A stretch of DNA of 64,000 nt from Nocardioides mesophilus (GTDB lineage: Bacteria > Actinomycetota > Actinomycetes > Propionibacteriales > Nocardioidaceae): NCBI RefSeq assembly GCF_014395785.1, contig NZ_CP060713.1, positions 3,686,501 through 3,750,500 on the forward strand, written 5' to 3'. Positions 16,485-34,240 of the stretch are shown piece by piece. Below the pieces are notes generated by a model, which was not told the DNA's origin, did no database searches, and saw nothing but the letters and a program-made list of their open reading frames with translations. The position numbers were made by a program, and so were the translations under genes. Position 1 is the first letter of the stretch; each line of letters opens with the position of its first letter.

Positions 16485-16551
16485 ACCTCGATGGTCAAGC
16501 GGAAGCAGGTTTCCCTACGCCGCCGATGTCCCGCACCTGAGCCGACCCTGG

Positions 16552-18285: not shown

Positions 18286-18527
18286 CCCTGGACGTTATCG
18301 GGATCTCCTCCACGAACAGAGCGGGCTCGCCCACGTTTGCAGTGCGTTCGAGGCGCACCTGTCCACCCGTGCCGACCGTTGTGGCGCACCGCACCGTGCG
18401 GGCACCGACTTGCGTGGCATTCCCTCCCGCAGTGGCGCCGAAAGGACGCGGGCCGATAACCGGCTCCCCGGCCGATGAGGATTGCGCAGCTACGAAGTCG
18501 TGTGTTGTCCAGCCTCGCTTGGCGCGC

Positions 18528-18791
18528 AGTACGTGCCCTTCGACGGCACGCTCGAGCTGTTGCCGGGGTTGCGGCTCGTCCCAGCGCCGGGGCACACGCG
18601 GGTCGCAGGTGGTCGTCGTCGAGACCGACGGGCGTCGCGTCGTCATCGCCGGCGACACGGCGGTCTTCTTCGCCGAGCTCGACGAGCCGCGCACCGAAGG
18701 CCAGCGGCTCGTCCGCGCGCTCGACGCAGCGGAGGTCTGGCTCTCGCACGAGCACGAGCCGTGGCGGCCGCAGGTCGACCAGAACGACTGA
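18528..18791 (+). pseudogene. Remnant of a metallo-beta-lactamase-fold hydrolase
   Basis: The C-terminal third of an MBL-fold hydrolase survives in two frames. The first reads YVPFDGTLELLPGLRLVPAP then GHT. The second reads SQVVVVETDGRRVVIAGDTA, then a short stretch ending in WLSHEHEPWRPQ. The expected join GHTPGSQ is broken by an apparent 2-bp loss near 18599. The N-terminal half with the HxHxDH zinc motif is absent. The segment is decayed and should make no enzyme. Confidence 0.65.
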
Positions 18792-18929
18792 TAGCTGTGA
18801 GTCCGACAGACGGCGGTTTGCTGCGCTTTCGGTTGTTCCAGCGGCGGCGGTACCCCGATTCGGCGATGTACATCAACCGTTTCGGCTTGTGACTATGGCT
18901 TCTACCGCCTGCCAGGAGGGGAGTCGATC

Positions 18930-19661
18930 ATGGATTTGCGCCGAACCGGCCGTATCTTTGGATGGCTGTTCATTGGGACCTTCGTAACGAGCATTCCCGC
19001 GCGTCTTCTTTTCATCGACGGGGCGGGGGCAAGCTGGACGAACATGCGATTCGTCGCCGCGGACGCCTCCTCCACGAGTCTGAAGTGGGGTGCGCTTCTC
19101 GAGTTCGGCCTGATCGTCACTCAGCTCGGGACCGCTCTCGTGTTGTATCCAATCGCCCGTCGGCAGAGCGAGACGATCGCGCTCAGCTACGTGACCGCCC
19201 GGACCATCGAGTCCGTCTTTGCCGCCATCGGGCTTGTCAGCATGCTCTCGCTGGTATCGGTCATCAGCGCTATGAACGGGGCGAACGGCGTCGAGGCGGT
19301 CGCGCTGCAGGCTCAGGGCGACAGCCTCGCGCACGCCTACGAGTGGGCCTTCGAGTGGGGGCCCGGACTCGTGGCCGGCATCGGCAACGGGATTCTGCTC
19401 GGCTACCTCATGTACACATCAGCCCTCGTGCCCCCGCGGCTGGCGCTATTGGGTCTGATCGGCGGCCCGATCCTGATCCTCTCCTTCCTGATGATCCTGG
19501 CTGGGGTCTACAAGAACGGCGAGGGACCCTCGGGCCTGCTGACGCTCCCGGAAGCCGCGTGGGAACTGTCGCTCGGCATCTACTGCGCCTGGAAGGGATT
19601 CCGTTTGTCGAGCCCACTAGCCGAAACAATCCGCAGAAGCGAGGCGCTCCTACCCAGCTGA
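18930..19661 (+). CDS. DUF4386 domain membrane protein
   Basis: 243-residue integral membrane protein of the DUF4386 family. The ATG at 18930 has an excellent AGGAGGGG ribosome site. Visible family features are the opening RRTGRIFGWLFIGTFVTSIPAR, a second span LLEFGLIVTQLGTALVLYPI, the polar RRQSETIALSYVTARTIES segment, and later spans GIGNGILLGYLMY and LALLGLIGGPILILSFLMIL. Function is unknown for the family. Confidence 0.88.
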   Translation: MDLRRTGRIFGWLFIGTFVTSIPARLLFIDGAGASWTNMRFVAADASSTSLKWGALLEFGLIVTQLGTALVLYPIARRQSETIALSYVTARTIESVFAAIGLVSMLSLVSVISAMNGANGVEAVALQAQGDSLAHAYEWAFEWGPGLVAGIGNGILLGYLMYTSALVPPRLALLGLIGGPILILSFLMILAGVYKNGEGPSGLLTLPEAAWELSLGIYCAWKGFRLSSPLAETIRRSEALLPS

Positions 19662-19843
19662 CGGCACAGCACGACTCACACGTGACGCTTTGACCGGTCT
19701 CACCATCGCGAGCATCACGCGACCGATGCCGTGCCGTTGGCCGGCGCCCATGCGATCGGTGGGGCAGTGGAGCCGCAGACGGACGCGGACACGCGGCGGC
19801 TAGACGCACTCATCGCGGCAAGAAGGGTTTCCCTTGCTCATGG

Positions 19844-20203
19844 TCAACCGATGACGGCGGCGTTGATCCGGTCGACCAGCGCCCGGCCGTCCTCGACCGA
19901 CAGGTACAGCCGCGCGAACGGAGCACTCGGGTCGAGTTCGATGACCACCGTCTGGCCGCCGCGGCAGACGTTCCAGTAGGTCCGTTGCCCGTCACGGAAG
20001 AACGTGCCGACCCACTTCGCATTCGGTAGCGCCAGGCCCGGCGCGCGCAGTCCCTTGCCGGCGTAGAAGGCCTCGGGGTCGTACGTCGCCCCGCGCACCT
20101 GCGCCAGCGGGACCTCGATCTGCCGTCGCAGACCCCACAGCTTGTCGAGGCCACGGGGCTCCACGACCAGTCGGTCGCCGGTAAGGGTCACGTCGTTACG
20201 CAT
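19844..20203 (-). CDS. Hypothetical protein, possible PH-like fold
   Basis: 119 residues. A beta-rich pattern (VTLTGDRLVVEPRG, RQIEVPLAQVRGATYDP, TYWNVCRGGQTVVIELD, and a final helix VEDGRALVDRINAAV) resembles the bacterial PH-like membrane-surface domains; this is a fold guess only. Its start overlaps the last 8 bp of the upstream TetR gene, so translation is probably coupled. It is the likely target or partner of that regulator. Confidence 0.75.
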   Translation of the reverse strand: MRNDVTLTGDRLVVEPRGLDKLWGLRRQIEVPLAQVRGATYDPEAFYAGKGLRAPGLALPNAKWVGTFFRDGQRTYWNVCRGGQTVVIELDPSAPFARLYLSVEDGRALVDRINAAVIG

Positions 20204-20579
20204 CTCCGTCGTCCTTCGTCTCGTCCATCAGTGCCCGGGTCAGCAGGCGTCGGCCCAGGTCGGTCGCGGTGACGCCGCGCCGGTCAAGGTGCTCGCCGAG
20301 CAGGCCACGGACCTCCTCGTCGCGAGGGGCGAGCTCGAGCAGCGCGACCAGCACCAGGTCGGTGGTGTCCTCGCTGCCGGGATGCTCGGACACCTGTCGG
20401 CGCAGGCAGCTGACGAACAGGCCCCGCTTGCTCCCGAACGCCTGGTAGAGGCTCCCGCGGTGCAGGCCCGTGGCCCCCACCAGCTCTTCAATGGAGGTGC
20501 CCTCGTAGCCCGCCCGCAGAAAGGTCGCGGCCGCGCGGTCGAGCACCTCGCCCTCGTCGTAGCCGCGCTGCCGTCCCAT
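20196..20579 (-). CDS. TetR-family transcriptional regulator
   Basis: 127 residues from the ATG at 20579 (MGRQRGYDEGEVLDRAAATF). The helix-turn-helix is clear (TSIEELVGATGLHRGSLYQAFGSKRGLF). At about 127 residues it is much shorter than the usual 190-residue family members, so the ligand domain is abbreviated. It starts 21 bp from a palindrome that probably is its own operator and overlaps the next gene by 8 bp. Confidence 0.88.
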   Translation of the reverse strand: MGRQRGYDEGEVLDRAAATFLRAGYEGTSIEELVGATGLHRGSLYQAFGSKRGLFVSCLRRQVSEHPGSEDTTDLVLVALLELAPRDEEVRGLLGEHLDRRGVTATDLGRRLLTRALMDETKDDGDA

Positions 20580-20970
20580 GCCGCCAGAGTAATTGATAAC
20601 TGACCGTTCGTTCAAGTAATGACCACCGGTGTTGCCGACTCTCGACCCTGGGCAACAAGAACGGGACGCGGACGCGACTCCTTTATCGACTCTGTTCAGT
20701 CCGCGGTCCATCGGCTTCTACGCAGACGTCCTTGGCTTGCTTTGAGCCGGGGCCGCGGCCGCGCCCCCGAAGTCAATGGCAGTGGCCCCTCAGGATCGGG
20801 CGGACATTGTGGTTGGCATGGGTGGCTCTACGGACAAGCGATGCCGACGACGCGAGCGGCGCGCTTGGCCGCTCCTCTGAGCGAGCCTGCAGACACGCCG
20901 ACACGCGGCGGAAGGGTGCGCTCCCAGCCACGCCCCGACCCCTGGGCTCCCGACCCTTAGGCTCGCAGCC
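20580..20970. other. 391-bp intergenic region
   Basis: Holds the TetR operator and promoter at its left end. The rest has no credible gene on either strand. At the right end TAGGCT, about 13 bp before the ATG at 20971, fits a leaderless promoter. Confidence 0.5.
20601..20614. promoter_or_regulatory. Probable TetR operator
   Basis: TGACCGTTCGTTCA is an imperfect palindrome (TGAxxG-TT-CGxxCA) placed 21 bp upstream of the TetR start, overlapping an AT-rich promoter-like TAATTGATAAC. Position and symmetry fit autorepression. Confidence 0.6.
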
Positions 20971-21330
20971 ATGCCCACTCCCGACTGGATAGAGCACCGC
21001 CGCCCCGACGGCGAGCTCCTCGGCTGGATGGTGCCCGCCGGCGACGGATTTCACATCATCGACCTGCTAGGACGCCAACGCACCGAGTCGCCGGCAGACT
21101 GGCCCGATGCCGAGGAAGCGCTCGAGACGCTCGGGATCGGCTACCTCGCCAACCGCTACAGCTTGCGGCTCTCGGATGGCGGGGAGCGTCGCGTGCGCAT
21201 CGGCGAGGTGAACCGATCGAGCATCGTCGTCCTTGCTGATGAGTTCGGCAGCGCCTCAGCGGTCGGGGCGAGACCACAAGTCTTCGAGCTGCCCTTTCCT
21301 GCGCCGGAGACTTTGCGGTCGCTCGACTGA
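20971..21330 (+). CDS. Conserved hypothetical protein
   Basis: 119 residues, soluble, no signal peptide. It opens DWIEHRRPDGELLGWMVPAG, followed by DLLGRQRTESPADWPDAEEALETLGIGYLA. The beta-strand-rich second half ends in SSIVVLADEF. No ribosome site is present and a TAGGCT -10 lies just ahead, so it is probably translated from a leaderless mRNA. Function unknown. Confidence 0.75.
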   Translation: MPTPDWIEHRRPDGELLGWMVPAGDGFHIIDLLGRQRTESPADWPDAEEALETLGIGYLANRYSLRLSDGGERRVRIGEVNRSSIVVLADEFGSASAVGARPQVFELPFPAPETLRSLD

Positions 21331-21717
21331 CGCAAGACGACCAACGGCCCGAGGCCGCGTCGCGATTACCGGCATAACAAGCAGTTGAGCGTGTTTCGAG
21401 GTGCGCCGGCAGGCGGCGGAGTGCCGCATGCCGATCCGACGAGCGCATCAGAGCAGATGAGCTATCCAGAGCTCCTGAACGGCCGCCAGGTTGAGCGCAG
21501 AGCGGACGCCATGTGCATGAGCAGATGACGTCACCAGGTTGGTCGTCGCGTTCTGCGACAACGCGAGTTCCGGGACGATTTGTCCGTTTTGCTGCGGCGC
21601 AACTCCGTCACCCTTTACCTTCCTGGACGTGCATCTGGTTGCGCTCGCCTTACTCGTACGGGCGTCAATGCCAACCGACAAACTCACTCTCAACAAGAAC
21701 CGGAAAGGCTCAACACC
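21331..21717. other. 387-bp intergenic region before the TM2 gene
   Basis: No convincing gene. The frame of the TM2 protein is open through the second half, but that part is not protein-like. A GGAAAGG ribosome site at 21702-21708 serves the TTG start at 21718. Confidence 0.45.
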
Positions 21718-21981
21718 TTGAACACCGTTACAGTCTCGACCCGCCGGGTCAACAAGGTCGTCTTCGTCCTGCTGTGCTTCTTTCTCGGCGGCTTCGGCGT
21801 CGACCGCTTCATGCGCGGCCAGGTCGGGCTCGGCATCTTCAAATTCCTGATCGGCTCGTGGGCCACGCTCGGCATTTGGCCGCTGGTCGACTTCATCGTC
21901 GCGCTCGTCAAGCTCGGGAAGTACCAGGACGAGTTCGTCTTCGACAACGCCGGCAAGTGGGTTGAGCCAGCCGCTCACTGA
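21718..21981 (+). CDS. TM2-domain membrane protein
   Basis: 87 residues from the TTG at 21718, set by GGAAAGG nine bases upstream. A short polar N-terminus (NTVTVSTRRVNKVV) leads into a TM2 pair of helices: FVLLCFFLGGFGVDRFMRGQ with the family's G-x-D-R-F turn, then GLGIFKFLIGSWATLGIWPL ahead of the acidic DFIVAL. The role of TM2 proteins is not established. A strong terminator follows immediately. Confidence 0.82.
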   Translation: MNTVTVSTRRVNKVVFVLLCFFLGGFGVDRFMRGQVGLGIFKFLIGSWATLGIWPLVDFIVALVKLGKYQDEFVFDNAGKWVEPAAH

Positions 21982-21992
21982 ACGCTCTCACG

Positions 21993-22034
21993 CACTGTGC
22001 CTAGGTCGGGCGACCCGCTGACTTAGGCACAGTG
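21993..22034 (+). terminator. Rho-independent terminator after the TM2 gene
   Basis: A 15-bp stem with one G-U type mismatch (CACTGTGCCTAGGTC paired with GACTTAGGCACAGTG), a 12-base loop, and TATTTGT after it. Confidence 0.8.
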
Positions 22035-22121
22035 TATTTGTGGCGTCCTGGCTCAAGCAGATTCAGCGCGGCTTCTGGCGGCGGATTGACGTAGCTCGGT
22101 ACTGCGGAGAGGTTGATGGAC

Positions 22122-22220
22122 TCAGCCTGACCCTGCGGTGGTGAACACAAAGACACAGAGGTCTGCGATTACCAACGCTGAGGCGGAAAGTCCGCTTTTG
22201 GCAAGGTCACCACGAGTCAT
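22122..22220 (-). CDS. Candidate 32-residue small protein
   Basis: The ATG at 22220 is preceded by GAAGGAGGTG with six bases of spacing, one of the best ribosome sites in the window. The product MTRGDLAKSGLSASALVIAD continues with a hydrophobic LCVFVFTTAGSG tail and stops at 22122. It could be a small membrane or secreted peptide, or the start of a gene truncated by the neighbouring IS110 event. The ribosome site is the evidence; no family is known. Confidence 0.4.
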   Translation of the reverse strand: MTRGDLAKSGLSASALVIADLCVFVFTTAGSG

Positions 22221-22441
22221 GTAGACCACCTCCTTCCTCTCATCAGAGCCAATTTCGGCCGGGTTGCTTGAGATGAGGATGTGGAACAGGACTGCTGCGA
22301 ATGCCACCAGCAGAGACAGGACCCGGAGAACCGGGCTCAGCCCACCAACCCCCCAATGATGGCAGACACCACCGACACTCTGGACGAGAATCGCAGCAGT
22401 TACTCAGCCAGCCGCCTGACGCGGCACAGGCCCGGCTAACG

Positions 22442-22671
22442 CGGCTACTAGACGATTCCCCTAGGGCCGGCGTCTGGCCAGACTCGGTCCAGGTGATCGG
22501 CGGGAAGCTCTTCATGCGGCTGCCCACCGAGCTGATCTGGTGTGGCTCACTATCGGTCTGCAGCCCGTCGGTCACCGTGACGAGGCGTGGCTCAAGAAGG
22601 GACTGCCCTGCTCGTAGTAGCAATGCCCACCTCGCCGACCCCATCGGATCGAGCACAGGCGGGAGCAACAT
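22442..22671 (+). ncRNA. Candidate bridge RNA region of the IS110 element
   Basis: The 230 bases upstream of the transposase have no convincing gene and contain several short inverted repeats (GGCC around 22468-22482; CGTC/GACG around GTCACCGTGAC near 22568-22584). In characterised IS110-group elements this left flank encodes a structured RNA whose two loops guide target and donor recognition. Assignment is by position; loops were not matched to flanking DNA. Confidence 0.45.
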
Positions 22672-23850
22672 ATGAGTCAGCAAGTTGAGCAGGTCATCAT
22701 CGGGGTCGATCCCCACAAGCTGTCGGCCACGATCGAGGTCGTCGACGAGCGCGAGCAGCTGCTCGGGTCAGGTCGGTTCACCACCGACCGAGCCGGCTAC
22801 GCAGCGATGCGGACCTACGCGAAGAAGTGGCCCGACCGGGTCTGGGCGGTCGAGGGCAGCAACGGTGCCGGCCGGCCGCTTGCGCAGCGACTCCTCGAAG
22901 ACGGCGAGCAGGTCGTCGACGTCCCCGCCAAGCTCGCTGCTCGGGTCCGGCTCTTCGACACCGGTCACAACCGCAAGACCGACGCCCACGATGCCCACGC
23001 GGTCGCGGTCGTCGCGGTCCGCACCAAGAGCCTGCGGGTGCTGCAACTCGACGGGGAACTCGAAGCCCTGCGGATGCTCACCGACCGCCGCGAAGCACTC
23101 ACCAGACGCCGGGTCCAGACCGTCGACCGACTCCAGGCACTGCTGGCTGAACTCCTGCCAGGGCAGGCGAAACGTGACCTCACCACCGGCCAGGCCAAAG
23201 CGATGCTGGCCACCGTCCGCCCCCGCGACATCGCCGGCAAGACCCGCCGACGCATCGCCGCCGAGGAGTTGGCCGAGCTCATCGCGGTCGAGGCCAAGAT
23301 CAAGAAGGCCACCGCCGAACTCAAGACCATCGTGCTCGCCCGCGGCTCACACCTGATGGACCTCCACGGCGTCGGCCCCGTCGTGGCCGCCCGGGTCCTG
23401 GCCGACGTCGGGGACGTCACCCGCTTCGCCGACCGCAACCGGTTCGCCTCCTGGACCGGCACCGCACCCCTCGATGCCTCCTCCGGTGAGCAGAACCGCC
23501 ACCGGCTCTCCCGCGCCGGGAACCGCCGGATCAACCACATGATCCACATCGCCGCGATTAACCAGCTCCGCCTCGACACCGACGGCCGGGTCTACTACCG
23601 ACGCAAGCGAGCCGAGGGCAAGAAGCCCCTCGAGGCGATCAGGTGCCTCAAGCGCAGGATCTCCGACGCCATTTACCGACAGCTGCTCGAGGACGCCCAA
23701 CTCGATGCCGGACAACACCCAAGCGCGGGCCCGGGAGGGCACTGCGGGGCGACTCAAGAATCCAGCGCGGTCGACCTGCCCCCGCACATCGACACTTCGG
23801 ATCAGCCACTTCCCGGACCCGCAAGGAAGACGCTACGCCTGACCGGTTGA
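22672..23850 (+). CDS. IS110-family transposase (bridge-RNA-guided recombinase type)
   Basis: 392 residues, ATG start at 22672. The N-terminal RuvC-like DEDD domain has Asp in IIGVDPHK (about residue 12), Glu in VWAVEGSNG (about 60) and the paired acids of KTDAHDAHAVA (about 104-107). A coiled middle follows (AEELAELIAVEAKIKKATAEL). The C-terminal Tnp domain has LHGVGPVVAARVLADVGD and RFASWTGTAPLDASSG; Ser260 in FASW is the likely nucleophile, then HRLSRAGNRRINHMIHIAA. Length and both domains look intact, so the element may be active. Confidence 0.93.
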   Translation: MSQQVEQVIIGVDPHKLSATIEVVDEREQLLGSGRFTTDRAGYAAMRTYAKKWPDRVWAVEGSNGAGRPLAQRLLEDGEQVVDVPAKLAARVRLFDTGHNRKTDAHDAHAVAVVAVRTKSLRVLQLDGELEALRMLTDRREALTRRRVQTVDRLQALLAELLPGQAKRDLTTGQAKAMLATVRPRDIAGKTRRRIAAEELAELIAVEAKIKKATAELKTIVLARGSHLMDLHGVGPVVAARVLADVGDVTRFADRNRFASWTGTAPLDASSGEQNRHRLSRAGNRRINHMIHIAAINQLRLDTDGRVYYRRKRAEGKKPLEAIRCLKRRISDAIYRQLLEDAQLDAGQHPSAGPGGHCGATQESSAVDLPPHIDTSDQPLPGPARKTLRLTG

Positions 23851-23875
23851 CAACAGAAGGGAGCCGGTATGACGC

Positions 23876-23892
23876 GCGATCGAAATGATCGC
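23876..23892. repeat. 6-bp inverted repeat downstream of the transposase
   Basis: GCGATC-GAAAT-GATCGC. It may belong to the right end of the IS110 element or act as a weak terminator for the convergent genes; there is no T-run. Confidence 0.35.
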
Positions 23893-23954
23893 AGGAACCG
23901 TACCTCCATGTCGCTGGAGTCAGAGGCTTCGATGCAGGTGTCGCAGGTTGTGGC

Positions 23955-25481
23955 TCAGGCGCTGGAGATGACGGTGAGCTCGCTTTCCGACCGCACGGTG
24001 GCGTCAAGGGCGTTCTGGCTTTGGTGGAACTCAACCGCTTCGGGGAACTCTTCGAACTCGAGGAGTTCGCCGGCCAGTTCGGCGAGTAGATCGCGGGCAT
24101 CAGCCGGAGTGGCGTAGAAGAACTCCCGGCGCAGGTTCACCTTGTTCACTCGCTGGGCTGCGAGTCGTCGATGCATCTCGGACTCAATGCCGACCGCGTC
24201 GTCGGCGAAGAACAACGCGTGGACGTCAAAGTTGAACGGGACGGACGCGTCGCTGAGCTCCCGGATCCGGTCACGCGGCTCCAGACGGCGGGTCATTCCT
24301 ACCTTGATCATTCGCTCTCCGAAGGCTCCGAGGTTAGAAATCACGTAGACGTAGCCGGCACGGGCATTCGCGGCTCGGTAGTCAACGTCGGCGATGGCCT
24401 TCTCGACGTCGTCGAGCTGCGCACGCATCCGCTCCGCACCCTCGGTGTCCCCTTTGTCGAGCAGCGCCTGGATAGCGTTCCTGTAGTGCTGACGCTCCTT
24501 CTCCAGCCGCTCCTTTTCACGAGCAATCTCCTGCTCGACCTTGCGCTGCTCACGGAGCAGTTCGCGCTCCTCCCGCTCTTTCTCCTTTTCCCTGGCCAGC
24601 ATCTCCTGGTAGTCGGCGGCGAGTTCGAGTTCGCGGATACGCAACCGGTGGTACTCCGTAGTGACCTCGATCGACATGGTCTTGCCGAGGTTCTGGATGG
24701 TCTTCACGACCTTGTTCAGCCGATCGACGGCCGATTCCAGCTTGTAGGGCTTCATTCCGCGGACCAGGTTGTCGGCCTCTGCGTTGTAGGCGCGCAGCAT
24801 CAGCTTGGAGAAATCCTTCACCATCTTGCGGCCCTGCGCGGCCGAGCCGTTGACCTGCCATTGAGTGGCGCCACGGATTGCGCCGTTCTCCTGCCTGGCC
24901 AGGGTCTTGATCCGGTCCTGGAGCTGGGACAGTTCGGCCTTGTAAGCGATCGAGTCGGCGAGCGGGTGCCGGTACTCGTAGATGCCGACCTCCTGCAGTA
25001 TCTCCGCCTCCTGGGTCAGTACCACGTTGCGCCTCAACTCGACCAGTTTCGCGTCCAGGGCCGACCGCTCCTGCTCGAACGCGGCGCGTTGTTGCGCGAC
25101 CTGCGTTTGCAGCTCCTCACGCTCCCGACGCAACTCGGCGACGTCGAGGACGCCCAAACGCTCCATCTCCGAGCGCAGCCGCTCCAACTCCTCCGAGGTC
25201 TGCAGCGCATGCTTGCGGGCGCCGAACAGCGGAACCTTGGTCGACGACTTCTCCTGCCACCGCGGCGCGGCAGCCCGGGGCGCACCGGGATCAGACTGCG
25301 TGGCTGGCCGATCTTCACCTAGGTCCGATGCGGCCGCCGGCGTCGCCGAGAGTACTGCCGCGTGAACCGACGGCTGCTGCCTCGCGGAGCGGCGCTCCGT
25401 CCACTGCTGTCCGTCCCAGTAGCGCAATTGGCCGGAGTCCCGCGGGTCCGGGTACCAGTCGGCTGGTGGCATGCTGTTCAT
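23955..25481 (-). CDS. DUF2510 / coiled-coil / DUF4041 / GIY-YIG (Mug113-type) nuclease
   Basis: 508 residues from the ATG at 25481 (MNSMPPADWYPDPRDSGQLR). In order: a DUF2510 motif at about 4-30 (actinobacterial, often on membrane-associated proteins); a low-complexity linker; a coiled coil (EELERLRSEMERLG onward); a DUF4041 region (EILQEVGIYEYRHPLADS through LVRGMKPYKLESAVDRLNK); a long charged coiled coil (EKEKEREERELLREQRKVEQ); and at about 375-475 a GIY-YIG domain (GYVYVISNL, MIKVGMTRR, RIRELSDAS, Glu433/Glu435 in GIESEMHRRL, FFYATPADARDLL). DUF4041 plus Mug113-type GIY-YIG is, as I recall, the architecture of the membrane nuclease SNIPE that cuts incoming phage DNA. Here DUF2510 replaces a membrane helix. 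It lies beside Kiwa-like genes. Confidence 0.9.
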   Translation of the reverse strand: MNSMPPADWYPDPRDSGQLRYWDGQQWTERRSARQQPSVHAAVLSATPAAASDLGEDRPATQSDPGAPRAAAPRWQEKSSTKVPLFGARKHALQTSEELERLRSEMERLGVLDVAELRREREELQTQVAQQRAAFEQERSALDAKLVELRRNVVLTQEAEILQEVGIYEYRHPLADSIAYKAELSQLQDRIKTLARQENGAIRGATQWQVNGSAAQGRKMVKDFSKLMLRAYNAEADNLVRGMKPYKLESAVDRLNKVVKTIQNLGKTMSIEVTTEYHRLRIRELELAADYQEMLAREKEKEREERELLREQRKVEQEIAREKERLEKERQHYRNAIQALLDKGDTEGAERMRAQLDDVEKAIADVDYRAANARAGYVYVISNLGAFGERMIKVGMTRRLEPRDRIRELSDASVPFNFDVHALFFADDAVGIESEMHRRLAAQRVNKVNLRREFFYATPADARDLLAELAGELLEFEEFPEAVEFHQSQNALDATVRSESELTVISSA

Positions 25482-25750
25482 AGTGGTGTCCCCCTGAATG
25501 CGATAAGTCCAACCGGACGCTACCCACACCTTCGATAAGAGGTGGGTATTCGCCTGAATCTTCTCCGCTCCAGCCCGGAGGAGGGATCGGTGGTCCGCCA
25601 ATTCGCGGCGACAAGACGCGACGCGGTTGGAACGCGGCGGTTTGCGTCCGCACCGAGCGCCGCAGTTGGTGTCCGGAACTCAACAGCGAGCAGGTCAGTC
25701 GGTGGCACGGGCAAGGAGATCTGGCAGCGGAGCGGCCGCGAGACAGCAGG

Positions 25751-26611
25751 TCAGCGCGCCGCCTTCTTGTCCGCGCGGAAACCAACGTTCGTGATAGCAC
25801 CGTAGAAGAGGTCCTCGTTCAGGAACTGCAAGACCGTTGGGATGTGCTCGTCTGCGAACTCGAGCTCTCCGGCGTCAGTCAAGAGCACGTCCGGATCAAG
25901 GCCGACCTGAGTCATGGTCTCCCTGATCCTGTCCGACGTGATCCCATCGAGGTGTCCTCGATTAACGATCGTTTCCAAGCGACTAGCTATTCGTCGATCG
26001 CGCAGGGCCTTCGCGGCGAGCCGGTCAAGGCCAGCCTGCGATATGGGTAGGTGTCCAGCGAGGTCACCCGTCCAGGCCGGTACCTGCGCGGTCAACGCCT
26101 CTTGGTCGCGGAACAACGCTCGAAACGTGCTCTGCGAAAGGACATGCACTCGCTCGCCCACGAAGATGAGGTCGATGTTGAGGTCGAACCCGAAGACGGG
26201 CTCGTCGATCCTCGTGAGTGTGTCACTCAGGCTGGTCAACAACCGCCCTGCGCGCAAGCCTCGACGAGGATTGGCTCGTCGAACGAACGCTGCTCGAGAT
26301 CCTGGCGTGTTTCCGATCGTGAGCGCATACAACTCTAGGTTGGCTGCAGGGATGCTTTGAGGCGTTAGGACCGGTAGGCCTTCGGCAGTCAACAGCGCTT
26401 CAGCGAAGGTCGGCTGCGTCAGATCTGAAGCGAGAACCGGCGCCGACCCGAGTAGGTCTTGGTGAAGCGTCAGAAACGTTTCGGACGACTGATCGGCTTC
26501 TGGCGTCCAGGGTTCGTTCTCCCGTTGGGACATGTCGTCCAGAGTGTCGGCGATCACTTCTCGGAAGGTCGCGGCCACCTCGGATCCAAGAAGCACCTGA
26601 CAAAGTCTCAT
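25751..26611 (-). CDS. kwaB: KwaB-like protein (DUF4868), Kiwa anti-phage system
   Basis: 286 residues, ATG at 26611 with AGGA six bases upstream. The C-terminal two thirds follow the DUF4868 pattern: FGFDLNIDLIFVGERVHVLS, QSTFRALFRDQEALTAQV, SRLETIVNRGHLDGIT, then LEFADEHIPTVLQFLNEDLF and a basic end FRADKKAAR. In characterised Kiwa, KwaB is a DNA-binding effector that cooperates with membrane protein KwaA to block phage replication and transcription. A KwaA-like gene lies 96 bp upstream on the same strand in the canonical order. The call rests on motif pattern plus neighbour; no structure or alignment was run. Confidence 0.78.
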   Translation of the reverse strand: MRLCQVLLGSEVAATFREVIADTLDDMSQRENEPWTPEADQSSETFLTLHQDLLGSAPVLASDLTQPTFAEALLTAEGLPVLTPQSIPAANLELYALTIGNTPGSRAAFVRRANPRRGLRAGRLLTSLSDTLTRIDEPVFGFDLNIDLIFVGERVHVLSQSTFRALFRDQEALTAQVPAWTGDLAGHLPISQAGLDRLAAKALRDRRIASRLETIVNRGHLDGITSDRIRETMTQVGLDPDVLLTDAGELEFADEHIPTVLQFLNEDLFYGAITNVGFRADKKAAR

Positions 26612-26707
26612 CTTGGGTCCTGAGCGCCAGCCGACACTCAGGGTGAGATCGTCGCTCGGATCGATCGCTGAGAGGTCCGTTGTCGTATCGGTCGGGATGA
26701 TGGCCCC

Positions 26708-27214
26708 CTATGGCTGGACGATGGTGAGCTTCAGGGCCGTCGCCGAAAGCCGCACCGCATGGATTGTCTGCCCGGCCTGCGGACGGACGGAGGAAAGCAT
26801 TATTCCGCCAAAGCCAGAAGTCGTCTGCACTTTGTACAGGTGGTAACCGGCGGCGAGCAGTACCGGTTGAACGAGGACGAGATCAGTTCGCAGAACAAGC
26901 AGACCGACGAGCACGGCGAACGCCCCATACGCGACGGCGTCTCGCCAGTCCGCCCCCGTGACGAATACGAACGGAAAGACAAACGCCAAAAGATAGGCGG
27001 GTACCTGAGCGCTCTCGTCGTCGACGGCTATGAGCTCGTAGGGCTGTTCATTCGTCGTGCCTCGTGCCCTGAGAAGAAGGATCATGCTGCCGATCGAGGA
27101 CACGCCCGCGCCGACGAGCACGATCGCGACGACAGGCCGACCGTCGCTCAGTCGGAGCGCGGCGAGAAGAACGCCGGGAGCCGCGGCCCCTAGAAGAAGA
27201 CGAAACCTCAGCAC
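26708..27214 (-). CDS. kwaA: KwaA-like membrane protein, Kiwa anti-phage system
   Basis: 168-residue four-helix membrane protein. The spans are LLLGAAAPGVLLAALRL, VVAIVLVGAGVSSIGSMILL, VPAYLLAFVFPFVFVTG and AVAYGAFAVLVGLLVL. Then comes the QPVLLAAGYHLYKVQTTSG segment that resembles the conserved end of KwaA proteins, and a cytoplasmic tail. In Kiwa, KwaA senses infection at the membrane and recruits KwaB. The GTG at 27214 overlaps the stop of a 69-residue upstream frame, suggesting coupled translation. On its own the protein would be a generic membrane protein; kwaB next to it gives the name. Confidence 0.7.
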   Translation of the reverse strand: MLRFRLLLGAAAPGVLLAALRLSDGRPVVAIVLVGAGVSSIGSMILLLRARGTTNEQPYELIAVDDESAQVPAYLLAFVFPFVFVTGADWRDAVAYGAFAVLVGLLVLRTDLVLVQPVLLAAGYHLYKVQTTSGFGGIMLSSVRPQAGQTIHAVRLSATALKLTIVQP

Positions 27215-27417
27215 AGACCAACGCCCGTTTCACTCGCGAGGCGCCTGACTGCTCTGTTGAATGCGTGGCGCGCAGTGAAACCGTGGAACGTGGCTCGAAC
27301 GACCGAGCCCTCGCAGAGGTGTGCGTGTCGGACGACGCCACCAGTCCTACCCGCAACGATTTGAACGAGGTGCCGCGACCCTTCGGATCTGGTCGCCAGA
27401 TCGGGATGAATGGCCAT
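27208..27417 (-). CDS. Small hypothetical protein upstream of kwaA
   Basis: 69 residues (starts MAIHPDLATRSEGSRHLVQI, ends RRLASETGVGLC). The stop overlaps the GTG of kwaA by 7 bases on the same strand, which suggests translational coupling. It is basic with several histidines; no family recognised. The ribosome site is weak, and the frame could be chance in this patchy-composition region. Confidence 0.4.
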   Translation of the reverse strand: MAIHPDLATRSEGSRHLVQIVAGRTGGVVRHAHLCEGSVVRATFHGFTARHAFNRAVRRLASETGVGLC

Positions 27418-27665
27418 AAGCGCAGCCTGCCATCAAGGACCGACGAGCGTCTCGCGATCGGTCCCCTGTGACCGCCGTTGCTTCGCTCGGTGGGACTAAC
27501 CGGGCTGCGGCGTCCACCACGCGGATCCGTGTCAGGCACGCGGCGAAGTGACTCACCCTCTCGAGCACCCGCTGGCCCCTCGGGATGGGAACTACACGCG
27601 CAGCCGGTTACCGCCACTCTGACTTCGACGGGGCTCTCTCGTCGGGCAACGAAGACTTGGCCGAT

Positions 27666-29195
27666 ATGAAGGTCAGTAGTCGCAACGCCGTTCTTGTCGG
27701 CCCTATACGGCACACTGCGAGAGTGAACGTGCCTACGTCTTCCGAGCAGCGGCAGCCTGAGTCGCCATCAAGCACAGGGACGAGTTGGGCGACGGCTCGC
27801 ATCGTCGTCGTGACCGGTTTGACCTCGCTTCTATTGGCCGTAGTCGCTGCCTGGGTCCTAGGTTGGCTGAAGACAGGGAATGCAAGTTGGTTGAGAGACG
27901 AGAAGTTCACAGGTAATGGCGCTGTGTTCGAGATTGTGCGCGCCGCCGTCACTCTTCTCGGCGTGATGGGCATCGCAATCGGCGGCGCGCTCGCGTACCG
28001 TCGTCAACGCTTGGGCGAGGATCAGTTCGATCTCGCCCAGAGACAGCATAAAGACGTCATTGCACGGGACCGGCGCGATCACGAGCGCGAAGTCGTCTCC
28101 CGCCTCCGGGATAGATTCACCATCGCTGCGGGTCAGCTTGGAGACGGGGCGCTAGCTGTAAGGGTTGCTGGCGTTTACGCCATGGCAAATCTTGCCGACG
28201 AATGGCTAATACGCGCTGAAGGCAATGCGCTGGATCGCCACGAAGCGCAGGCGTGCGTGGACGTTCTTTGCGCCTACATGCGACTGCCGGAACTGGGTGG
28301 AGGCGGCCAGCGTGAAGACCCCGGACGAACTGAAGTCGGAGTCGTCCCGCCCGACGGCGAACCTGCAGCACTCGGCTTCGTTCGGGATGCTGAGATCCGG
28401 CGCACGATCATTCGAGTCCTGGTAAGGCACGTCCGACCGGAGGCGCCAATCTCATGGTCGGAGCTCGACTTCGACTTCAGTGGTGTTCATTTCGACGGAT
28501 TCTTCGACTTCAGTGACGCTCGCTTTAGTGGACAGTCCCTGTCTTTCCGGGGGGCAACCTTTGCCGAAGGGCTAGTTACTTTCGACGGAGCCCACTTCGC
28601 TTGTTCGAGTGTCTCATTTCGCGACGCCAGTTTGGCTGCAGGTGACGTTTCGTTTGATCGAGCGGTGTTCTCCAGCGCTCAGGTCGCTTTTATCGGCGCT
28701 GCCTTCGCAGGCGGTCGTGTCTCTTTCAGTGGGGCCATCCTTGATGGCGGTGAATTGACCTTCAGGCGCTCGACGCTCACCGGCGGCGTGGTGTCCCTAA
28801 GCAATGCAAAACTCCGCGGAGGGAAACTATCGTTCAACCGAGCGAAGCTGGCGTCAGGCAGGCTGGTCTTCGTCGGCACCACGTTCGAGGGCGCGCGCGT
28901 CTCATTTAATCGGGCCAGGTTTGAGTGCGGTGAGGTCTCGTTCTCGGACGCGGCGTTCATGGCCGGAAGCGTGACGTTCCACGAAACTGAGATCTCGTTC
29001 TCCATGTGGATCATCTGCAACGGGGCAACCTTCAACGGAGGCACTTTGTCCTTCCTCGGCGCACGATTCGAAGGGGGCGGCGTCACTTTTGCCAAAGCGC
29101 GTGGCCAAGGACCCTGGCCTCAGGGACCATGGCTCGGGGACGTCTTGCCCACGCGATGGCCCCAGTCCGAGCCGCAGCCCTCCGCGCGAGACTAA
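27666..29195 (+). CDS. Membrane-anchored 12-residue-repeat (pentapeptide-like) protein
   Basis: 509 residues from the ATG at 27666; a GTG at 27723 is an alternative. Two transmembrane helices (VVVTGLTSLLLAVVAAWVLG and VRAAVTLLGVMGIAIGGALA) are followed by a charged helix, then a helical domain around RDRFTIAAGQLGDGALAVRV and MANLADEW with CVDVLCAYMRLPE. From about 28540 to 29098 come about 15 tandem copies of a 12-residue unit, F-x-x-A-x-F-x-x-G-x-V-S. Almost all are exactly 12 long (FDGAHFACSSVS, FRDASLAAGDVS, FIGAAFAGGRVS, FNRARFECGEVS). This should fold as a right-handed beta-solenoid. Databases would probably say pentapeptide repeat. It lies divergent from the Kiwa-like genes; function unknown. 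Confidence 0.8.
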   Translation: MKVSSRNAVLVGPIRHTARVNVPTSSEQRQPESPSSTGTSWATARIVVVTGLTSLLLAVVAAWVLGWLKTGNASWLRDEKFTGNGAVFEIVRAAVTLLGVMGIAIGGALAYRRQRLGEDQFDLAQRQHKDVIARDRRDHEREVVSRLRDRFTIAAGQLGDGALAVRVAGVYAMANLADEWLIRAEGNALDRHEAQACVDVLCAYMRLPELGGGGQREDPGRTEVGVVPPDGEPAALGFVRDAEIRRTIIRVLVRHVRPEAPISWSELDFDFSGVHFDGFFDFSDARFSGQSLSFRGATFAEGLVTFDGAHFACSSVSFRDASLAAGDVSFDRAVFSSAQVAFIGAAFAGGRVSFSGAILDGGELTFRRSTLTGGVVSLSNAKLRGGKLSFNRAKLASGRLVFVGTTFEGARVSFNRARFECGEVSFSDAAFMAGSVTFHETEISFSMWIICNGATFNGGTLSFLGARFEGGGVTFAKARGQGPWPQGPWLGDVLPTRWPQSEPQPSARD

Positions 29196-29271
29196 TCAGC
29201 GCGGTGACACAGTCTGGGCTGTTCGGTGCCGCGTCATTCTGGGCGGTGTGCAGCGCCCTGCGGTGCCCTGG

Positions 29272-30192
29272 CTATGCCGTGAGGGCGAGGCCCTTGAAGA
29301 CCTGCGTGGTATGCCAGTGCACGTACTCGGGCTTGGGTAGTGCTGTGCCCGGTCGTGCACGAAGCTCCCGGCCGTGGAGCTCGTAGACGACTTTGCCGGT
29401 GTCGGTGCGCGCGGAGAAAGCGTTGGAGACCTGGATCCGGTAACCGACGTCGAGCCCGAGGGCGCCGCGGTCGAGGAGCTTGTGGTGCAGGGCGCACAAC
29501 GCGAGCCCGTTGTCCGGGACGTCGGGTCCGCCGAGGTTGAACCAGCGGACGTGGGCGGCTTCGATCCCCACGATCGCGCCGCCGAGCTGCCCGTCGTACC
29601 CGCAGAACGCGCACTGGCGGTCCCAGGCGTCCAGGACGGCCTGTCTCCATGCGGAGCTTCGTCGCCGTCGCAGGGCCTGGTCGGTCACGTCCGACGTCAA
29701 ACCGAGGGTGTACTCCGGGTCGAGGCCGACCGCGGAGAGGACGTCGGGGGCGACGGTCATCGGGAACTGCGCCTCGACCAAGCGGCGGGCGGCAGCGGAG
29801 ATCAGCGACGGCCGCTCGCGGAGGGCAGCCTCCAGTTCGCTGCCCAGCCGGCCGGTGACGTCACTGTCCCGCAGCGGACCGAGGTTGTCGTCGGGCACGT
29901 CGCGATCGAGAGTCCAGATGCCGTCGCGACGCAGGCGCGTGAACGGGTACGCCGCCGACTGTGGCCGGCCGGTCCTCGACGGCGGCCCGAACTCCGAGAT
30001 CAGGTCGGCGAGCTGCTGCTCGGCCAACGACCAGGAGATGGCGCTGGTGCCCTCGCGCTCGAGGTGGCCGAGGGCGAGCAGCACGAGCAGCGGCTTGTGC
30101 GGAACGCGCTGCCCGTCGTGGATGTACTGACGAAAGGAGGTCAGCCGGTCCACGACCTCCTGGTCGGTCAGGTTCGTCATGCGACCGATCAT
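29272..30192 (-). CDS. Type IV restriction endonuclease, phosphorothioate-binding SBD plus HNH (ScoMcrA-like)
   Basis: 306 residues. The N-terminal half matches the sulfur-binding domain of enzymes that cut phosphorothioated DNA: RVPHKPLLVLLALGHLE, ISWSLAEQQLADLISEFGPP, AAYPFTRLRRDGIWTLD. The C-terminal HNH nuclease has a zinc-like pair (CAFCG), IEAAHVRWFNLGGPDVPDNG and LCALHHKLLDRGALGL. By family knowledge such proteins recognise sulfur-modified DNA and act as type IV restriction. No dnd or ssp modification genes are in the window. Start taken at 30192; an ATG at 30180 is equally possible. Divergent from the NERD gene. Confidence 0.88.
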   Translation of the reverse strand: MIGRMTNLTDQEVVDRLTSFRQYIHDGQRVPHKPLLVLLALGHLEREGTSAISWSLAEQQLADLISEFGPPSRTGRPQSAAYPFTRLRRDGIWTLDRDVPDDNLGPLRDSDVTGRLGSELEAALRERPSLISAAARRLVEAQFPMTVAPDVLSAVGLDPEYTLGLTSDVTDQALRRRRSSAWRQAVLDAWDRQCAFCGYDGQLGGAIVGIEAAHVRWFNLGGPDVPDNGLALCALHHKLLDRGALGLDVGYRIQVSNAFSARTDTGKVVYELHGRELRARPGTALPKPEYVHWHTTQVFKGLALTA

Positions 30193-30287
30193 TCATCATG
30201 GGGGAGTTGCTTCTCGCGGGGTGCTGCTCGTTCTGCTGACGGTGTCGCGAAGTCCGCCTAGCCTGACCGGCGAACGGGAGGAGAGTC

Positions 30288-31217
30288 ATGGCGGGGGAGT
30301 CAGCGCGCGAGGTGGCGCGCCGTGCACGGGAGAAGGCGGAGCGGCTCAACAAGCGGGCCGAGCTGTTCGAGCAGGGCGCGGACGGTGAGGTTGCGACGGC
30401 CGCCATCCTGGCGACACTGCCTCCGGGCTGGATCTCACTGCACGACGTGCGTTGGCCGGGACGCCGGCTCGCGAATGTCGACCACGTGCTGATCGGTCCT
30501 GGCGGCGTGTTCGTCATCGACTCCAAGAACTGGACCGGCCGGATCAGCCTCGACGGCGGGCACCTCCGCCAGAACGGATACTCGCGGGAGAAGGCCGTGG
30601 CCGGTGCGGCTGACGCCGCACTTGCGGTGTCGGAGCTGATCAGTCCCTACGCGGCCTGGGTGCATCCGGTGCTGTGCTTCGTCGGGCAGGATCACCTCTC
30701 CGGCTGGTGCCGAGAGGTGATGGTGTGCTCGACCGCGAACCTGGTCGGCATGCTGACCAGCCGACCTGTTGTCTTCACTCCCGAGCATGTCAGCTACCTG
30801 CATGGTCAGCTCGACATCGGGCTTCGTCGTACGGCGGCTCGGCCGGCCGGACCGTCGAAGGGCTTCACCTTCCAGGACCGCGTGACGATGTCGAGGCAGT
30901 CGGCGCGACCACGTTCGCGCAGGAGCGGGGGACCGTCGCTCAGCCGCTTCCTTGTCGGCGTTGCGATGCTCATCGCGTTCGTCGGCGTCGGGCCCCAGGT
31001 CGCGACGGGCATCGGCGGCGCCCTGGCCGAGCAGCTCACCAAGAACGTCGGCACGCCGTCGTGCTCAGAGAGCCTCGACCCCCGCGCCCGGTCGGGGGAA
31101 GCAAGTGCTCAGCCAAGGAAGGTGAAGGAGCGGGCGAAGTCGCGTGCCCAGGAGCGCAGGCAGGCGCGTGAGTCCACCACCGCGCCACCTGCGGTCAACG
31201 AATGTGCCACCCCGTAA
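30288..31217 (+). CDS. NERD-domain nuclease-like membrane protein
   Basis: 309 residues, ATG at 30288 behind GGGAGGAG. A charged helix (RRAREKAERLNKRAELFEQG) is followed by a NERD domain with GEVATAAILATLPPG, DHVLIGPGGVFVIDSKNW (the D...D-x-K nuclease-like core) and a later VMVCSTANLVGMLTSRP. A single transmembrane helix (FLVGVAMLIAFVGVGPQVA) and a basic tail close the protein. NERD resembles restriction-type nucleases, but its biochemical role is mostly unknown. A second NERD protein, fused to a helicase, lies at 49993-51669. Confidence 0.85.
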   Translation: MAGESAREVARRAREKAERLNKRAELFEQGADGEVATAAILATLPPGWISLHDVRWPGRRLANVDHVLIGPGGVFVIDSKNWTGRISLDGGHLRQNGYSREKAVAGAADAALAVSELISPYAAWVHPVLCFVGQDHLSGWCREVMVCSTANLVGMLTSRPVVFTPEHVSYLHGQLDIGLRRTAARPAGPSKGFTFQDRVTMSRQSARPRSRRSGGPSLSRFLVGVAMLIAFVGVGPQVATGIGGALAEQLTKNVGTPSCSESLDPRARSGEASAQPRKVKERAKSRAQERRQARESTTAPPAVNECATP

Positions 31218-31309
31218 GGAATCCGTGTAGGTGCCGGCCCGGTGGCCGGTTATCCACAACTGGCGAATTGCCGGTGGCCCGCTGACCTCGGATGAGGTCA
31301 GGTCGACCC

Positions 31310-32581
31310 ATGCCGCAGTCACGCAGCCGTCGCACCCGCAACCAGTCCGCCGCCGCTCGCCGGCATCAACGTCGTCGCCGGTACGACGAGTCACGAGCTC
31401 TCCCACGGGGGACGGTCGCCGGCGCCTTTGCCAGCCTCACACTCACAGACCGCGGCAACATGAGGGCGGCTGCCGACGCGGAGCTGCAGGGCGATCCACA
31501 GACCGCGCTCCGTCACTACGAGTCGATCGCGCGCTTCACCGGCTCGATGCACCACCGCCGGCTCCGGCTGCTGGCGGAGGTCGGAGATGACGCGCCCGGA
31601 TGGCTGTGGGCGCGCTGGCTGACGGTGCAGGCCCGGCGTCCGCTGTGGACCGGCAGCGAGTCGACCGGTCCGGACCCCGCCCTCGAGACCGCGCTGAAGG
31701 TGGCCTACCCCCACGGAATCGACCTGTCGCACAGCGATGTCCTGTCGCTCGACGTGTTCGTGGCCTCGCTCTACGAACGGGACTGGGTGACCCGCCAGCT
31801 CATCGTCTACGAGTCCGGCGGTCTGGGTCACCTGGTCGACGAGCTCGCCGGACCCCGGCTGCTCGAGCACGCCGATCAACCTGCTGCGTGGGTATCTGCG
31901 CCGATGGGCGGCTATCGCCTCGAGTCCGACTCCGCCGGCGGATCGCTGATGCTGACTGACCTCGCCGACGGACAGCCGGTCGAGATCCTCGATCTCGGGC
32001 TTGCCATGGAGCACGCACCGGGCACCCACCTCCTGGGCCGGTTGGTGCCCACGAGGACACCGCCAGGAAGGATGTTCGAGTGGCGGCCGCTCCGGGTCGA
32101 CCCCATGACCGCGCGGAAGGTGGCAGCGAATCCCGCAACCTGGCTGGAGGTCGTTGCTGAGCAGGCGGCAACCGGCGCGTTGCCGATGATGTTCTCCTAC
32201 CTGGACGACGACACCTCGATGGCGTTCGACATCGCCGACCGGTCCTGGCTGGGACTGCTGGAGACCGATGACATCGACCGGATCCCGACGACCGACGGAC
32301 TCATCGACTACGCGGATGTCGCGCTGGCGGTGCTGCCGAGGGTGCTGTGGGTCGCCGAGCACTCGCCGGAGCACCTCGGCGCGGTTCGACACTACGCCGA
32401 GGCATTGCTGCTCGAACCGGGAGTGTGTGAGGAGGCACGTGAACACTTCGGCGGGTTCAGTGACGTCCCGGCCTGGAGGGCACTGGCCGGCGTGCTGCGC
32501 GAACCCGCACGAAGTCGGTGCCTAGAGCTGGCACGATCCCAGCGGGACTGCTCGTCGCCGGAAGGGGTGGAGTCCGCCTGA
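31310..32581 (+). CDS. Conserved hypothetical protein
   Basis: 423 residues from the ATG at 31310; an in-frame ATG at 31292 is also possible and neither has a strong ribosome site. A basic N-terminus (QSRSRRTRNQSAAARRHQRR) precedes helical segments such as AAADAELQGDPQTALRHYES and LRLLAEVGDDAPGWLWARWL, and a second half with DIADRSWLGLLETDD. No catalytic motif or known domain was recognised. The two ends suggest a nucleic-acid-associated regulatory protein, but this is weak. It follows the NERD gene by about 90 bp. Confidence 0.75.
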   Translation: MPQSRSRRTRNQSAAARRHQRRRRYDESRALPRGTVAGAFASLTLTDRGNMRAAADAELQGDPQTALRHYESIARFTGSMHHRRLRLLAEVGDDAPGWLWARWLTVQARRPLWTGSESTGPDPALETALKVAYPHGIDLSHSDVLSLDVFVASLYERDWVTRQLIVYESGGLGHLVDELAGPRLLEHADQPAAWVSAPMGGYRLESDSAGGSLMLTDLADGQPVEILDLGLAMEHAPGTHLLGRLVPTRTPPGRMFEWRPLRVDPMTARKVAANPATWLEVVAEQAATGALPMMFSYLDDDTSMAFDIADRSWLGLLETDDIDRIPTTDGLIDYADVALAVLPRVLWVAEHSPEHLGAVRHYAEALLLEPGVCEEAREHFGGFSDVPAWRALAGVLREPARSRCLELARSQRDCSSPEGVESA

Positions 32582-32669
32582 GGGCGGCCAGAGAACTGGT
32601 GCGCCCGCGCGACGTACTCGATCGTGAGCTCAGCGGGATCGAGCACCCCGTGCCAGGTCGACTCCTCCA

Positions 32670-34148: not shown

Positions 34149-34205
34149 TCGCGCTACCCCCGTCGACGTCGTTGTGGTCAGAACGACAAGAATACCAGAT
34201 CGGGG

Positions 34206-34234: not shown

Positions 34235-34240
34235 GACTGC

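What the first reader, a model, noticed from the sequence alone, without database searches (positions are those of the whole stretch)
23955..25481. DUF2510-coiled coil-DUF4041-GIY-YIG protein: possible actinobacterial SNIPE variant
DUF4041 followed by a Mug113-type GIY-YIG nuclease is, to my recollection, the core of SNIPE, a membrane nuclease that cuts injected phage DNA. Here the membrane helix is replaced by DUF2510, a motif common on actinobacterial envelope-associated proteins, which could provide a different way of reaching the membrane. It lies next to Kiwa, whose KwaA also acts at the membrane.
Basis: partly seen in the sequence, partly recalled or inferred. Interest (0 to 1): 0.75.

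Follow-up and report, generated by a model that had tools for sequence, protein, structure and literature searches.

The report
SNIPE-type phage nuclease with DUF2510
This actinobacterial gene encodes a relative of SNIPE, a bacterial enzyme that cuts phage DNA as it enters the cell, in which the usual membrane helix is replaced by a small tryptophan-rich module that recurs in related proteins and may hold the enzyme at the membrane in another way.

Summary
The gene lies on the minus strand (25481-23955, 508 aa) with DUF2510, a long coiled coil, DUF4041 and a T5orf172/MUG113 GIY-YIG nuclease, all domains above Pfam cut-offs, and matches PADLOC's PD-Lambda-1 (SNIPE) profile at 351 bits. Glu433 aligns with catalytic Glu414 of E. 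coli SNIPE. It has no transmembrane helix. So it is a SNIPE-family protein; actinobacterial PD-Lambda-1 is already reported in silico. What I did not find described is its N-terminus: among the 80 nearest GTDB loci, 20 carry DUF2510, 37 a second Trp/Pro-rich module and 23 neither, by pattern and with the starts I chose. On a core-only tree these labels changed repeatedly. In related genomes both modules often sit on proteins with a putative membrane helix. DUF2510-SNIPE genes also occur in phage immunity/integration cassettes. Best reading: an entry-site anti-phage nuclease addressed to the membrane by a module instead of its own helix; the tether is inferred. The Kiwa neighbour is not conserved (0 of 28 and 0 of 80 other loci). 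New variant of a known kind; moderate interest.

The parts
23955..25481 (-). SNIPE/PD-Lambda-1 homologue, 508 aa: DUF2510 - linker - coiled coil - DUF4041 - helices - GIY-YIG
25490..25495 (-). likely ribosome-binding site AGGGGG before the ATG at 25481
   Evidence: read from the sequence
25368..25457 (-). DUF2510 (residues 9-38), three-stranded sheet in the model; W9 Y10 R20 W22 G24 W27 T28 invariant in 22 sequences
24990..25220 (-). long helix / coiled coil (residues 88-164), overlapping the PLFGARK motif (residues 84-90) at its start
24639..24806 (-). DUF4041 Pfam match (residues 226-281); positions that are Lys/Arg in at least 52 of 57 rows: 192, 218, 226, 230, 244, 254, 257, 264 (Asn here), 281
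24081..24356 (-). GIY-YIG nuclease domain (T5orf172/MUG113, residues 376-467)
24183..24185 (-). codon of Glu433, aligned with catalytic Glu414 of E. coli SNIPE
25751..26611 (-). KwaB-like neighbour (context, not shown to be part of the system)
26708..27214 (-). KwaA-like neighbour (context)
22672..23850 (+). IS110-family transposase, downstream and convergent (context)

Best explanation
A single-gene anti-phage nuclease of the SNIPE (PD-Lambda-1) family. By homology, DUF4041 with its conserved basic positions contacts the incoming DNA and the phage tape measure/injection apparatus, and the C-terminal GIY-YIG domain (Glu433) cuts the DNA as it enters. In place of SNIPE's own transmembrane helix an N-terminal DUF2510 module on a flexible linker addresses the protein to the cytosolic side of the membrane, most likely by binding a partner shared with the membrane proteins that carry DUF2510. 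Shown here: the domains, the conserved residues, absence of a transmembrane helix, recurrence and exchange of the N-terminal modules, and the same architecture in phages. Inferred: anti-phage activity, DNA cleavage, membrane tethering and tape-measure binding.
For: PD-Lambda-1 profile match, E 2.5e-105 over residues 90-496. Ec E414 aligns with E433; G376, Y379, G395, R398, R399, R405, H421, H437, N446, N449, E453 invariant in 57 of 57 and E433 in 56 of 57. Nine DUF4041-region positions are Lys/Arg in at least 52 of 57 rows, in line with the conserved basic surface reported in PMC13190303. DUF2510-SNIPE genes in phages: Mask gp44 near integrase and immunity repressor; viral contig L150 between a Cro/C1-type regulator and an integrase. 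DUF2510 at the same place in 20 of 80 near loci, with repeated label changes on the core tree (7 for DUF2510, at least 4 forced by starred branches). DUF2510 and Trp/Pro-module proteins are enriched in putative membrane proteins: 17 of 27 and 14 of 20 against 368 of 1419. In 14 of 14 of the latter the Trp/Pro module lies on the Lys/Arg-rich side of the first helix.
Against: No experiment. 23 of the 80 near relatives carry neither module (22 if L095, whose frame holds a module-like stretch upstream of the start I chose, is counted with the others), and apart from L145 none of them shows a hydrophobic helix even upstream of the chosen start; 12 of them are in a starred clade of 13 proteobacterial and viral rows. 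So a membrane address may not be needed. Helix orientation is unclear for DUF2510 (more Lys/Arg before the first helix in 7 of 17, after it in 5, equal in 5). One homologue carries DUF2510 at its C-terminus (L045). The fold of DUF2510 gave no meaningful PDB match. The membrane-helix call is a plain hydropathy threshold, three of the 10 helix-less DUF2510 proteins were cut by the locus end, the genomes compared are related, and the background genes come from other neighbourhoods, not from the 39 genomes as a whole.
Confidence: 0.6

Rival explanations
1. A SNIPE-family nuclease that works without any membrane address: it stays in the cytosol in an auto-inhibited state and is released only by contact with phage injection proteins or special DNA. 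DUF2510 then serves oligomerisation, inhibition or partner binding.
For: 22-23 of 80 near relatives carry neither module and, except perhaps L145, no membrane helix; DUF2510 is on a long low-confidence linker and can sit at the C-terminus (L045); 10 of 27 DUF2510 proteins from relatives showed no putative helix. PMC13190303 proposes that membrane-bound SNIPE is auto-inhibited (passage).
Against: Removing the helix from E. coli SNIPE made it toxic, which its nuclease mutation abolished (PMC13190303 passage); both recurring modules are frequent on putative membrane proteins.
Confidence: 0.2
2. KwaA, KwaB and the nuclease form one three-gene unit: the Kiwa membrane assembly senses injection and this protein supplies the nuclease that Kiwa lacks.
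For: Same strand and order, 269 bp between kwaB and the nuclease gene; both systems act at the membrane (PMC12904381 passages); no promoter-like and no minus-strand terminator-like site was found in 23800-27500 (a simple consensus scan).
Against: KwaA/KwaB were detected beside none of 28 class and 80 GTDB SNIPE loci. KwaB was found in only 3 of 394 class genomes, the window's included; the one other genome with both, G250, has them about 434 kb apart.
Confidence: 0.06
3. Not a defence gene: a GIY-YIG protein of a mobile element or one with a housekeeping role.
For: An IS110 transposase lies beside it; I know of no activity measured for a DUF2510-bearing member (none found).
Against: Match over most of its length to the profile of an experimentally established defence protein; patchy, in 29 of 394 class genomes with one match each; relatives in temperate-phage immunity/integration cassettes.
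Confidence: 0.08

Closest known systems
SNIPE / PD-Lambda-1 of E. coli (PMC13190303; sequence used here: the PD-lambda-1 gene of phage PhiR26_1, L060)
   Same: DUF4041 plus GIY-YIG in the same order, catalytic Glu (E414 = E433), conserved basic DUF4041 positions
   Different: E. coli protein has an N-terminal transmembrane helix (hydropathy 3.37) and no DUF2510; 28% identity overall
DUF2510-DUF4041-GIY-YIG proteins of other actinobacteria, e.g. Janibacter sp. Soil728 (L066) and Mycobacterium phage Mask gp44 (L061)
   Same: full architecture including DUF2510
   Different: 65% identity in the best segment for L066, 48% for Mask; no Kiwa genes detected beside L066 or annotated beside Mask gp44
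Actinobacterial SNIPE homologues with the Trp/Pro-rich module (e.g. L072, L043)
   Same: core, no transmembrane helix, PLFGAR motif before the coiled coil
   Different: module FNxPPxWPxPPxGW...GWxPDPxWGPxPxGWxxW instead of DUF2510; no Pfam family for it among the members scanned
Kiwa (KwaA-KwaB)
   Same: acts at the membrane at injection (PMC12904381 passages); adjacent here
   Different: different proteins; adjacency not seen in other loci

Membership tests
SNIPE / PD-Lambda-1 | DUF4041 domain | tested here: met
   PF13250 E 6.6e-18, over cut-off
SNIPE / PD-Lambda-1 | C-terminal GIY-YIG nuclease with catalytic Glu | tested here: met
   T5orf172/MUG113; E433 = Ec E414; conserved in 56 of 57
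SNIPE / PD-Lambda-1 | whole-protein profile match | tested here: met
   PADLOC PDLC03976, 351 bits, residues 90-496
SNIPE / PD-Lambda-1 | N-terminal transmembrane helix (true of the E. coli protein; absent in 34% of the published homologues, so not treated as defining the family) | tested here: not met
   highest 19-residue hydropathy 0.96; no helix before residue 88 in the model; PMC13190303 section 9
SNIPE / PD-Lambda-1 | cuts phage DNA during injection and protects cells | not testable with these tools
   needs experiment
SNIPE / PD-Lambda-1 | binds phage tape measure protein | not testable with these tools
   needs experiment; no complex was modelled
DUF2510 (PF10708) | profile match and signature residues | tested here: met
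   E 8.4e-10; W9, W22, W27 invariant in 22
Kiwa (as a joint system with this gene) | nuclease gene conserved with kwaAB | tested here: not met
   0 of 28 class and 0 of 80 GTDB loci

The most novel reading that the evidence does not exclude
DUF2510 and the Trp/Pro-rich module are two interchangeable cytosolic 'address tags' of the actinobacterial membrane (possibly ligand and receptor of one another), and SNIPE-family nucleases borrow either one, instead of a transmembrane helix, to wait at the place where phage DNA enters. The Micromonospora operons in which a Trp/Pro-tagged SNIPE is followed at once by a DUF2510-tagged DEDDh exonuclease would then be a two-nuclease entry barrier held together by these tags.
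Probability: 0.22. Interest if true: 0.65.

Novelty: new variant of a known kind. Interest (0 to 1): 0.45.

Why it matters
If DUF2510 does bring SNIPE to the membrane, it gives a function to a domain of unknown role that is frequent in actinobacteria (27 of 39 related genomes here; no paper of the searched library mentions DUF2510), and shows that the entry-site strategy of SNIPE can be kept in other bacteria by swapping the address and not the blade. The swap predicts a simple test: move DUF2510 or the Trp/Pro module onto a helix-less, nuclease-dead SNIPE-GFP and ask where it goes.

Tried and rejected
Kiwa linkage: looked with the window's KwaA and KwaB (phmmer on genes picked by a simple ORF heuristic) beside SNIPE in 28 class regions and 80 GTDB loci, and for KwaB in 29 DUF4041 genomes with one PADLOC model and in 394 class genomes; not conserved. 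A very divergent pair could be missed. The two sets of loci overlap (four pairs of identical cores between them), and several loci end at contig ends, so the independent neighbourhoods are fewer than 108.

PLFGAR motif as an amphipathic membrane anchor: a loose pattern finds it before the coiled coil in 26 of 32 DUF2510, 38 of 47 Trp/Pro, 22 of 42 'neither' and 11 of 13 proteobacterial-clade rows, but the helical moment is modest except in part of the proteobacterial clade (medians 0.29, 0.21, 0.26 and 0.44). The pattern also caught wrong places in some rows, so I do not claim an anchor.

Fold of DUF2510: Foldseek gave no match below E 1.3 (parts of KatG and others); VIA-align best Z 2.4 to human chitotriosidase. 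Inconclusive. Whole model: nothing below E 0.16; among the weak rows are GIY-YIG chains of Slx1 (7cq2, 7cq4, 4xm5; E 1.2-1.8, prob 0.41-0.63); the VIA rows are long-helix matches.

Same-genus comparison: pieces of 16300-36200 hit six same-genus genomes at scattered places, and within the SNIPE and Kiwa genes only a 35-base match appeared (40 candidates per genome were scored; two of the six genomes are under 90% complete). This suggests an accessory region; I did not define its borders.

N-terminal labels depend on the start codon chosen by script. In L143 and L145 a hydrophobic stretch begins 24 and 27 residues upstream of the chosen start in the same frame, and in L095 a module-like stretch lies upstream; L145 may really have a helix and L095 a module. 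Some 'neither' rows (L084, L100, L104) may be truncated at their start. In the class survey (29 of 394 genomes) the 26 other rows labelled were 10 Trp/Pro, 6 DUF2510, 1 C-terminal DUF2510, 6 neither, 2 transmembrane, 1 left unlabelled (L052, which keeps a remnant of the module); two regions gave no row (L036, L057). Labels were corrected by hand for L098, L080, L091, L092, L118 and L037, L052; nine identical cores were dropped and the C-terminal DUF2510 was counted as DUF2510 in the tree.

Full report
WHAT IS THERE. On the minus strand at 25481-23955 lies an intact 508-residue gene with a likely ribosome-binding site. Pfam places DUF2510 at 9-38, DUF4041 at 226-281 and a T5orf172/MUG113 GIY-YIG domain at 376-467, all above the curated cut-offs. 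PADLOC's PD-Lambda-1 profile matches residues 90-496 at E 2.5e-105; PD-lambda-1 is the earlier name of SNIPE (its plasmid in PMC13190303 is called pKVS45-PD-lambda-1, passage). It is the only DUF4041 match in the 4.49 Mb genome. An AlphaFold2 model made from a 57-sequence alignment has mean pLDDT 85.8: a confident three-stranded DUF2510, a low-confidence linker (39-80), a 77-residue helix (88-164), the DUF4041 region, further long helices, and the GIY-YIG domain. By hydropathy there is no transmembrane helix: the highest 19-residue mean is 0.96, against 3.37 in E. coli PD-lambda-1.

FUNCTIONAL RESIDUES. Aligned to the PD-lambda-1 of phage PhiR26_1 (L060), catalytic Glu414 falls on Glu433. In the 57-row alignment G376, Y379, G395, R398, R399, R405, H421, H437, N446, N449 and E453 are invariant and E433 is kept in 56. 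Nine positions between 192 and 281 are Lys/Arg in at least 52 of 57 rows (the window itself has Asn at one of them, 264), which fits the conserved basic surface that the SNIPE paper reports for DUF4041 (PMC13190303; I saw the outline with abstract, passages and section 9). So the cutting and DNA-contacting parts look intact. Of the seven positions whose point mutants that paper made after selecting for better defence against one phage (E223, L253, W257, E264, K305, I308, T319), two have the same residue here (E264, I308) and five differ, as expected if phage specificity differs.

THE N-TERMINUS. From 581 confirmed relatives in GTDB genomes the 80 nearest were kept. By pattern 20 carry DUF2510, 37 a different Trp/Pro-rich module (FNxPPxWPxPPxGWxPPxGWxPDPxWGPxPxGWxxW) and 23 neither; with the starts I chose none has a stretch of transmembrane hydropathy. 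A recheck upstream of the chosen starts found a hydrophobic stretch in L143 and L145 and a module-like stretch in L095, so these three labels are unsure. Pfam finds DUF2510 in 22 of the 57 members of alignment A3, the number labelled so. In a separate survey 29 of 394 genomes of the class have DUF4041; there both modules recur, two homologues have a putative transmembrane helix and one has DUF2510 at its C-terminus. On a tree of 140 rows built from the core alone (window residues 160-470) DUF2510 needs 7 changes (at least 4 forced by starred branches), the Trp/Pro module 12 (at least 9), and with only these two labels 4 changes. Thus the N-terminus is exchanged while the core is kept. Twelve proteobacterial rows and one viral one form a starred clade among the actinobacterial rows and have no module, as if the module is of use only in actinobacteria; the tree's root is not inferred.

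WHAT THE MODULES MAY DO. Of 31 DUF2510 loci fetched from the best matches in 39 related genomes, the window's own included, 28 fitted my pattern; without the window's own gene 17 of 27 have a putative transmembrane helix. Of 20 non-SNIPE proteins with the Trp/Pro module 14 have one. The background is 368 of 1419 genes of at least 100 aa from the SNIPE neighbourhoods, SNIPE genes included. Fisher p is 7e-5 and 5e-5, to be read with care because the genomes are related and the helix call is crude. In 14 of 14 the Trp/Pro module is on the Lys/Arg-rich side of the first helix, which by the positive-inside rule is the cytosolic side; for DUF2510 it is 7 for, 5 against, 5 equal. This supports, but does not show, that the modules mark the cytosolic face of the membrane. 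The SNIPE paper found that 34% of homologues lack a transmembrane helix and proposed other membrane addresses (DivIVA-like, type III secretion ATPase-like, PH domains; section 9; DUF4428 in a figure legend). The term DUF2510 is absent from its main text and from every paper of the library searched.

PHAGE LINKS. DUF2510-DUF4041-GIY-YIG proteins are found in Mycobacterium phage Mask (gp44, near the integrase, the immunity repressor and a RelB-like antitoxin; Pfam) and in viral contigs L147, L148 (same core) and L150; L150 has it between a Cro/C1-type regulator and an integrase. A module-free relative sits beside the integrase of Corynebacterium phage Poushou. Such places are where temperate phages often keep genes that exclude other phages (general knowledge, no call), which supports a defence role.

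KIWA. KwaB-like and KwaA-like genes lie upstream on the same strand, with 269 bp between kwaB and the nuclease gene. No such pair was detected beside the SNIPE homologue in 28 class regions or 80 GTDB loci. KwaB is rare in the class sample (3 of 394 genomes, the window's included). The neighbourhood is best read as two defence systems side by side.

MECHANISM AND NOVELTY. Most likely the protein cuts phage DNA on entry like SNIPE, with DUF2510 taking over the role of the helix. Family membership rests on tested features (domains, catalytic residue, profile match over most of the protein); action and localisation are inferred. PD-Lambda-1 in actinobacteria is already in print from in silico surveys (Clavibacter, 95 of 114 genomes; passages of PMC11856565). 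The part that I did not find in print (searches and passages) is the exchange of two Trp-rich actinobacterial modules at the N-terminus. I rate it a new variant of a known kind, interest 0.45.

Noticed in passing
L030 7027-8385, L031 9720-11426, L032 6826-8259, L034 7366-8595, L037 9641-10915, L039 6761-8023, L040 7338-8603: In 7 of the 28 other class regions a coiled-coil-like protein of about 410-570 aa (as picked by script) lies immediately upstream of, or overlaps, the SNIPE homologue; the three scanned match up to about position 380 of 544 of PADLOC's mREase_IV model and not its C-terminal part. It may be the partner of a two-gene SNIPE system.
   Followed up: partly
L043 9829-11832, L075 9341-11281, L076 4481-6373, L081 9490-11382: Exonuclease (RNase_T/DEDDh; L043 matches PADLOC PDC-S48) carrying DUF2510 directly downstream of a Trp/Pro-tagged SNIPE homologue; the only 4 of 1453 neighbour genes with DUF2510 by pattern.
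   Followed up: partly
L097, L102, L108, L113, L124, L134, L137: In seven Nocardia loci a gene of one family lies beside the DUF2510-SNIPE gene; the one scanned (L137) is a caspase-TPR protein. Orientation differs among the loci.
   Followed up: partly
L087, L103, L105, L107, L109, L111, L114, L120, L130, L133, L135, L145, L146: A clade of 12 proteobacterial and one viral SNIPE homologue nested among actinobacterial ones, without module and mostly without transmembrane helix (L145 and viral L146 have a hydrophobic stretch): a likely transfer between phyla.
   Followed up: partly
L045 5482-7182: SNIPE homologue with DUF2510 at its extreme C-terminus (residues 540-565 of 566).
   Followed up: no
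L062 3815-5107 and L061 5704-7380: Corynebacterium phage gene 33 is annotated as 'ATPase' or 'AAA-ATPase' in some records but is a SNIPE homologue; the annotated start of Mask gp44 is probably about 96 codons too early.
   Followed up: no
window 16552-18285, 27585-29195, 29272-30192, 30288-31217, 32670-34148: Helicase-like ResIII protein, pentapeptide-repeat protein, HNH_2 nuclease, NERD-domain protein, and an ADP-ribosylglycohydrolase with a weak match to a dual-specificity phosphatase domain: further candidate defence or island genes around the locus.
   Followed up: no
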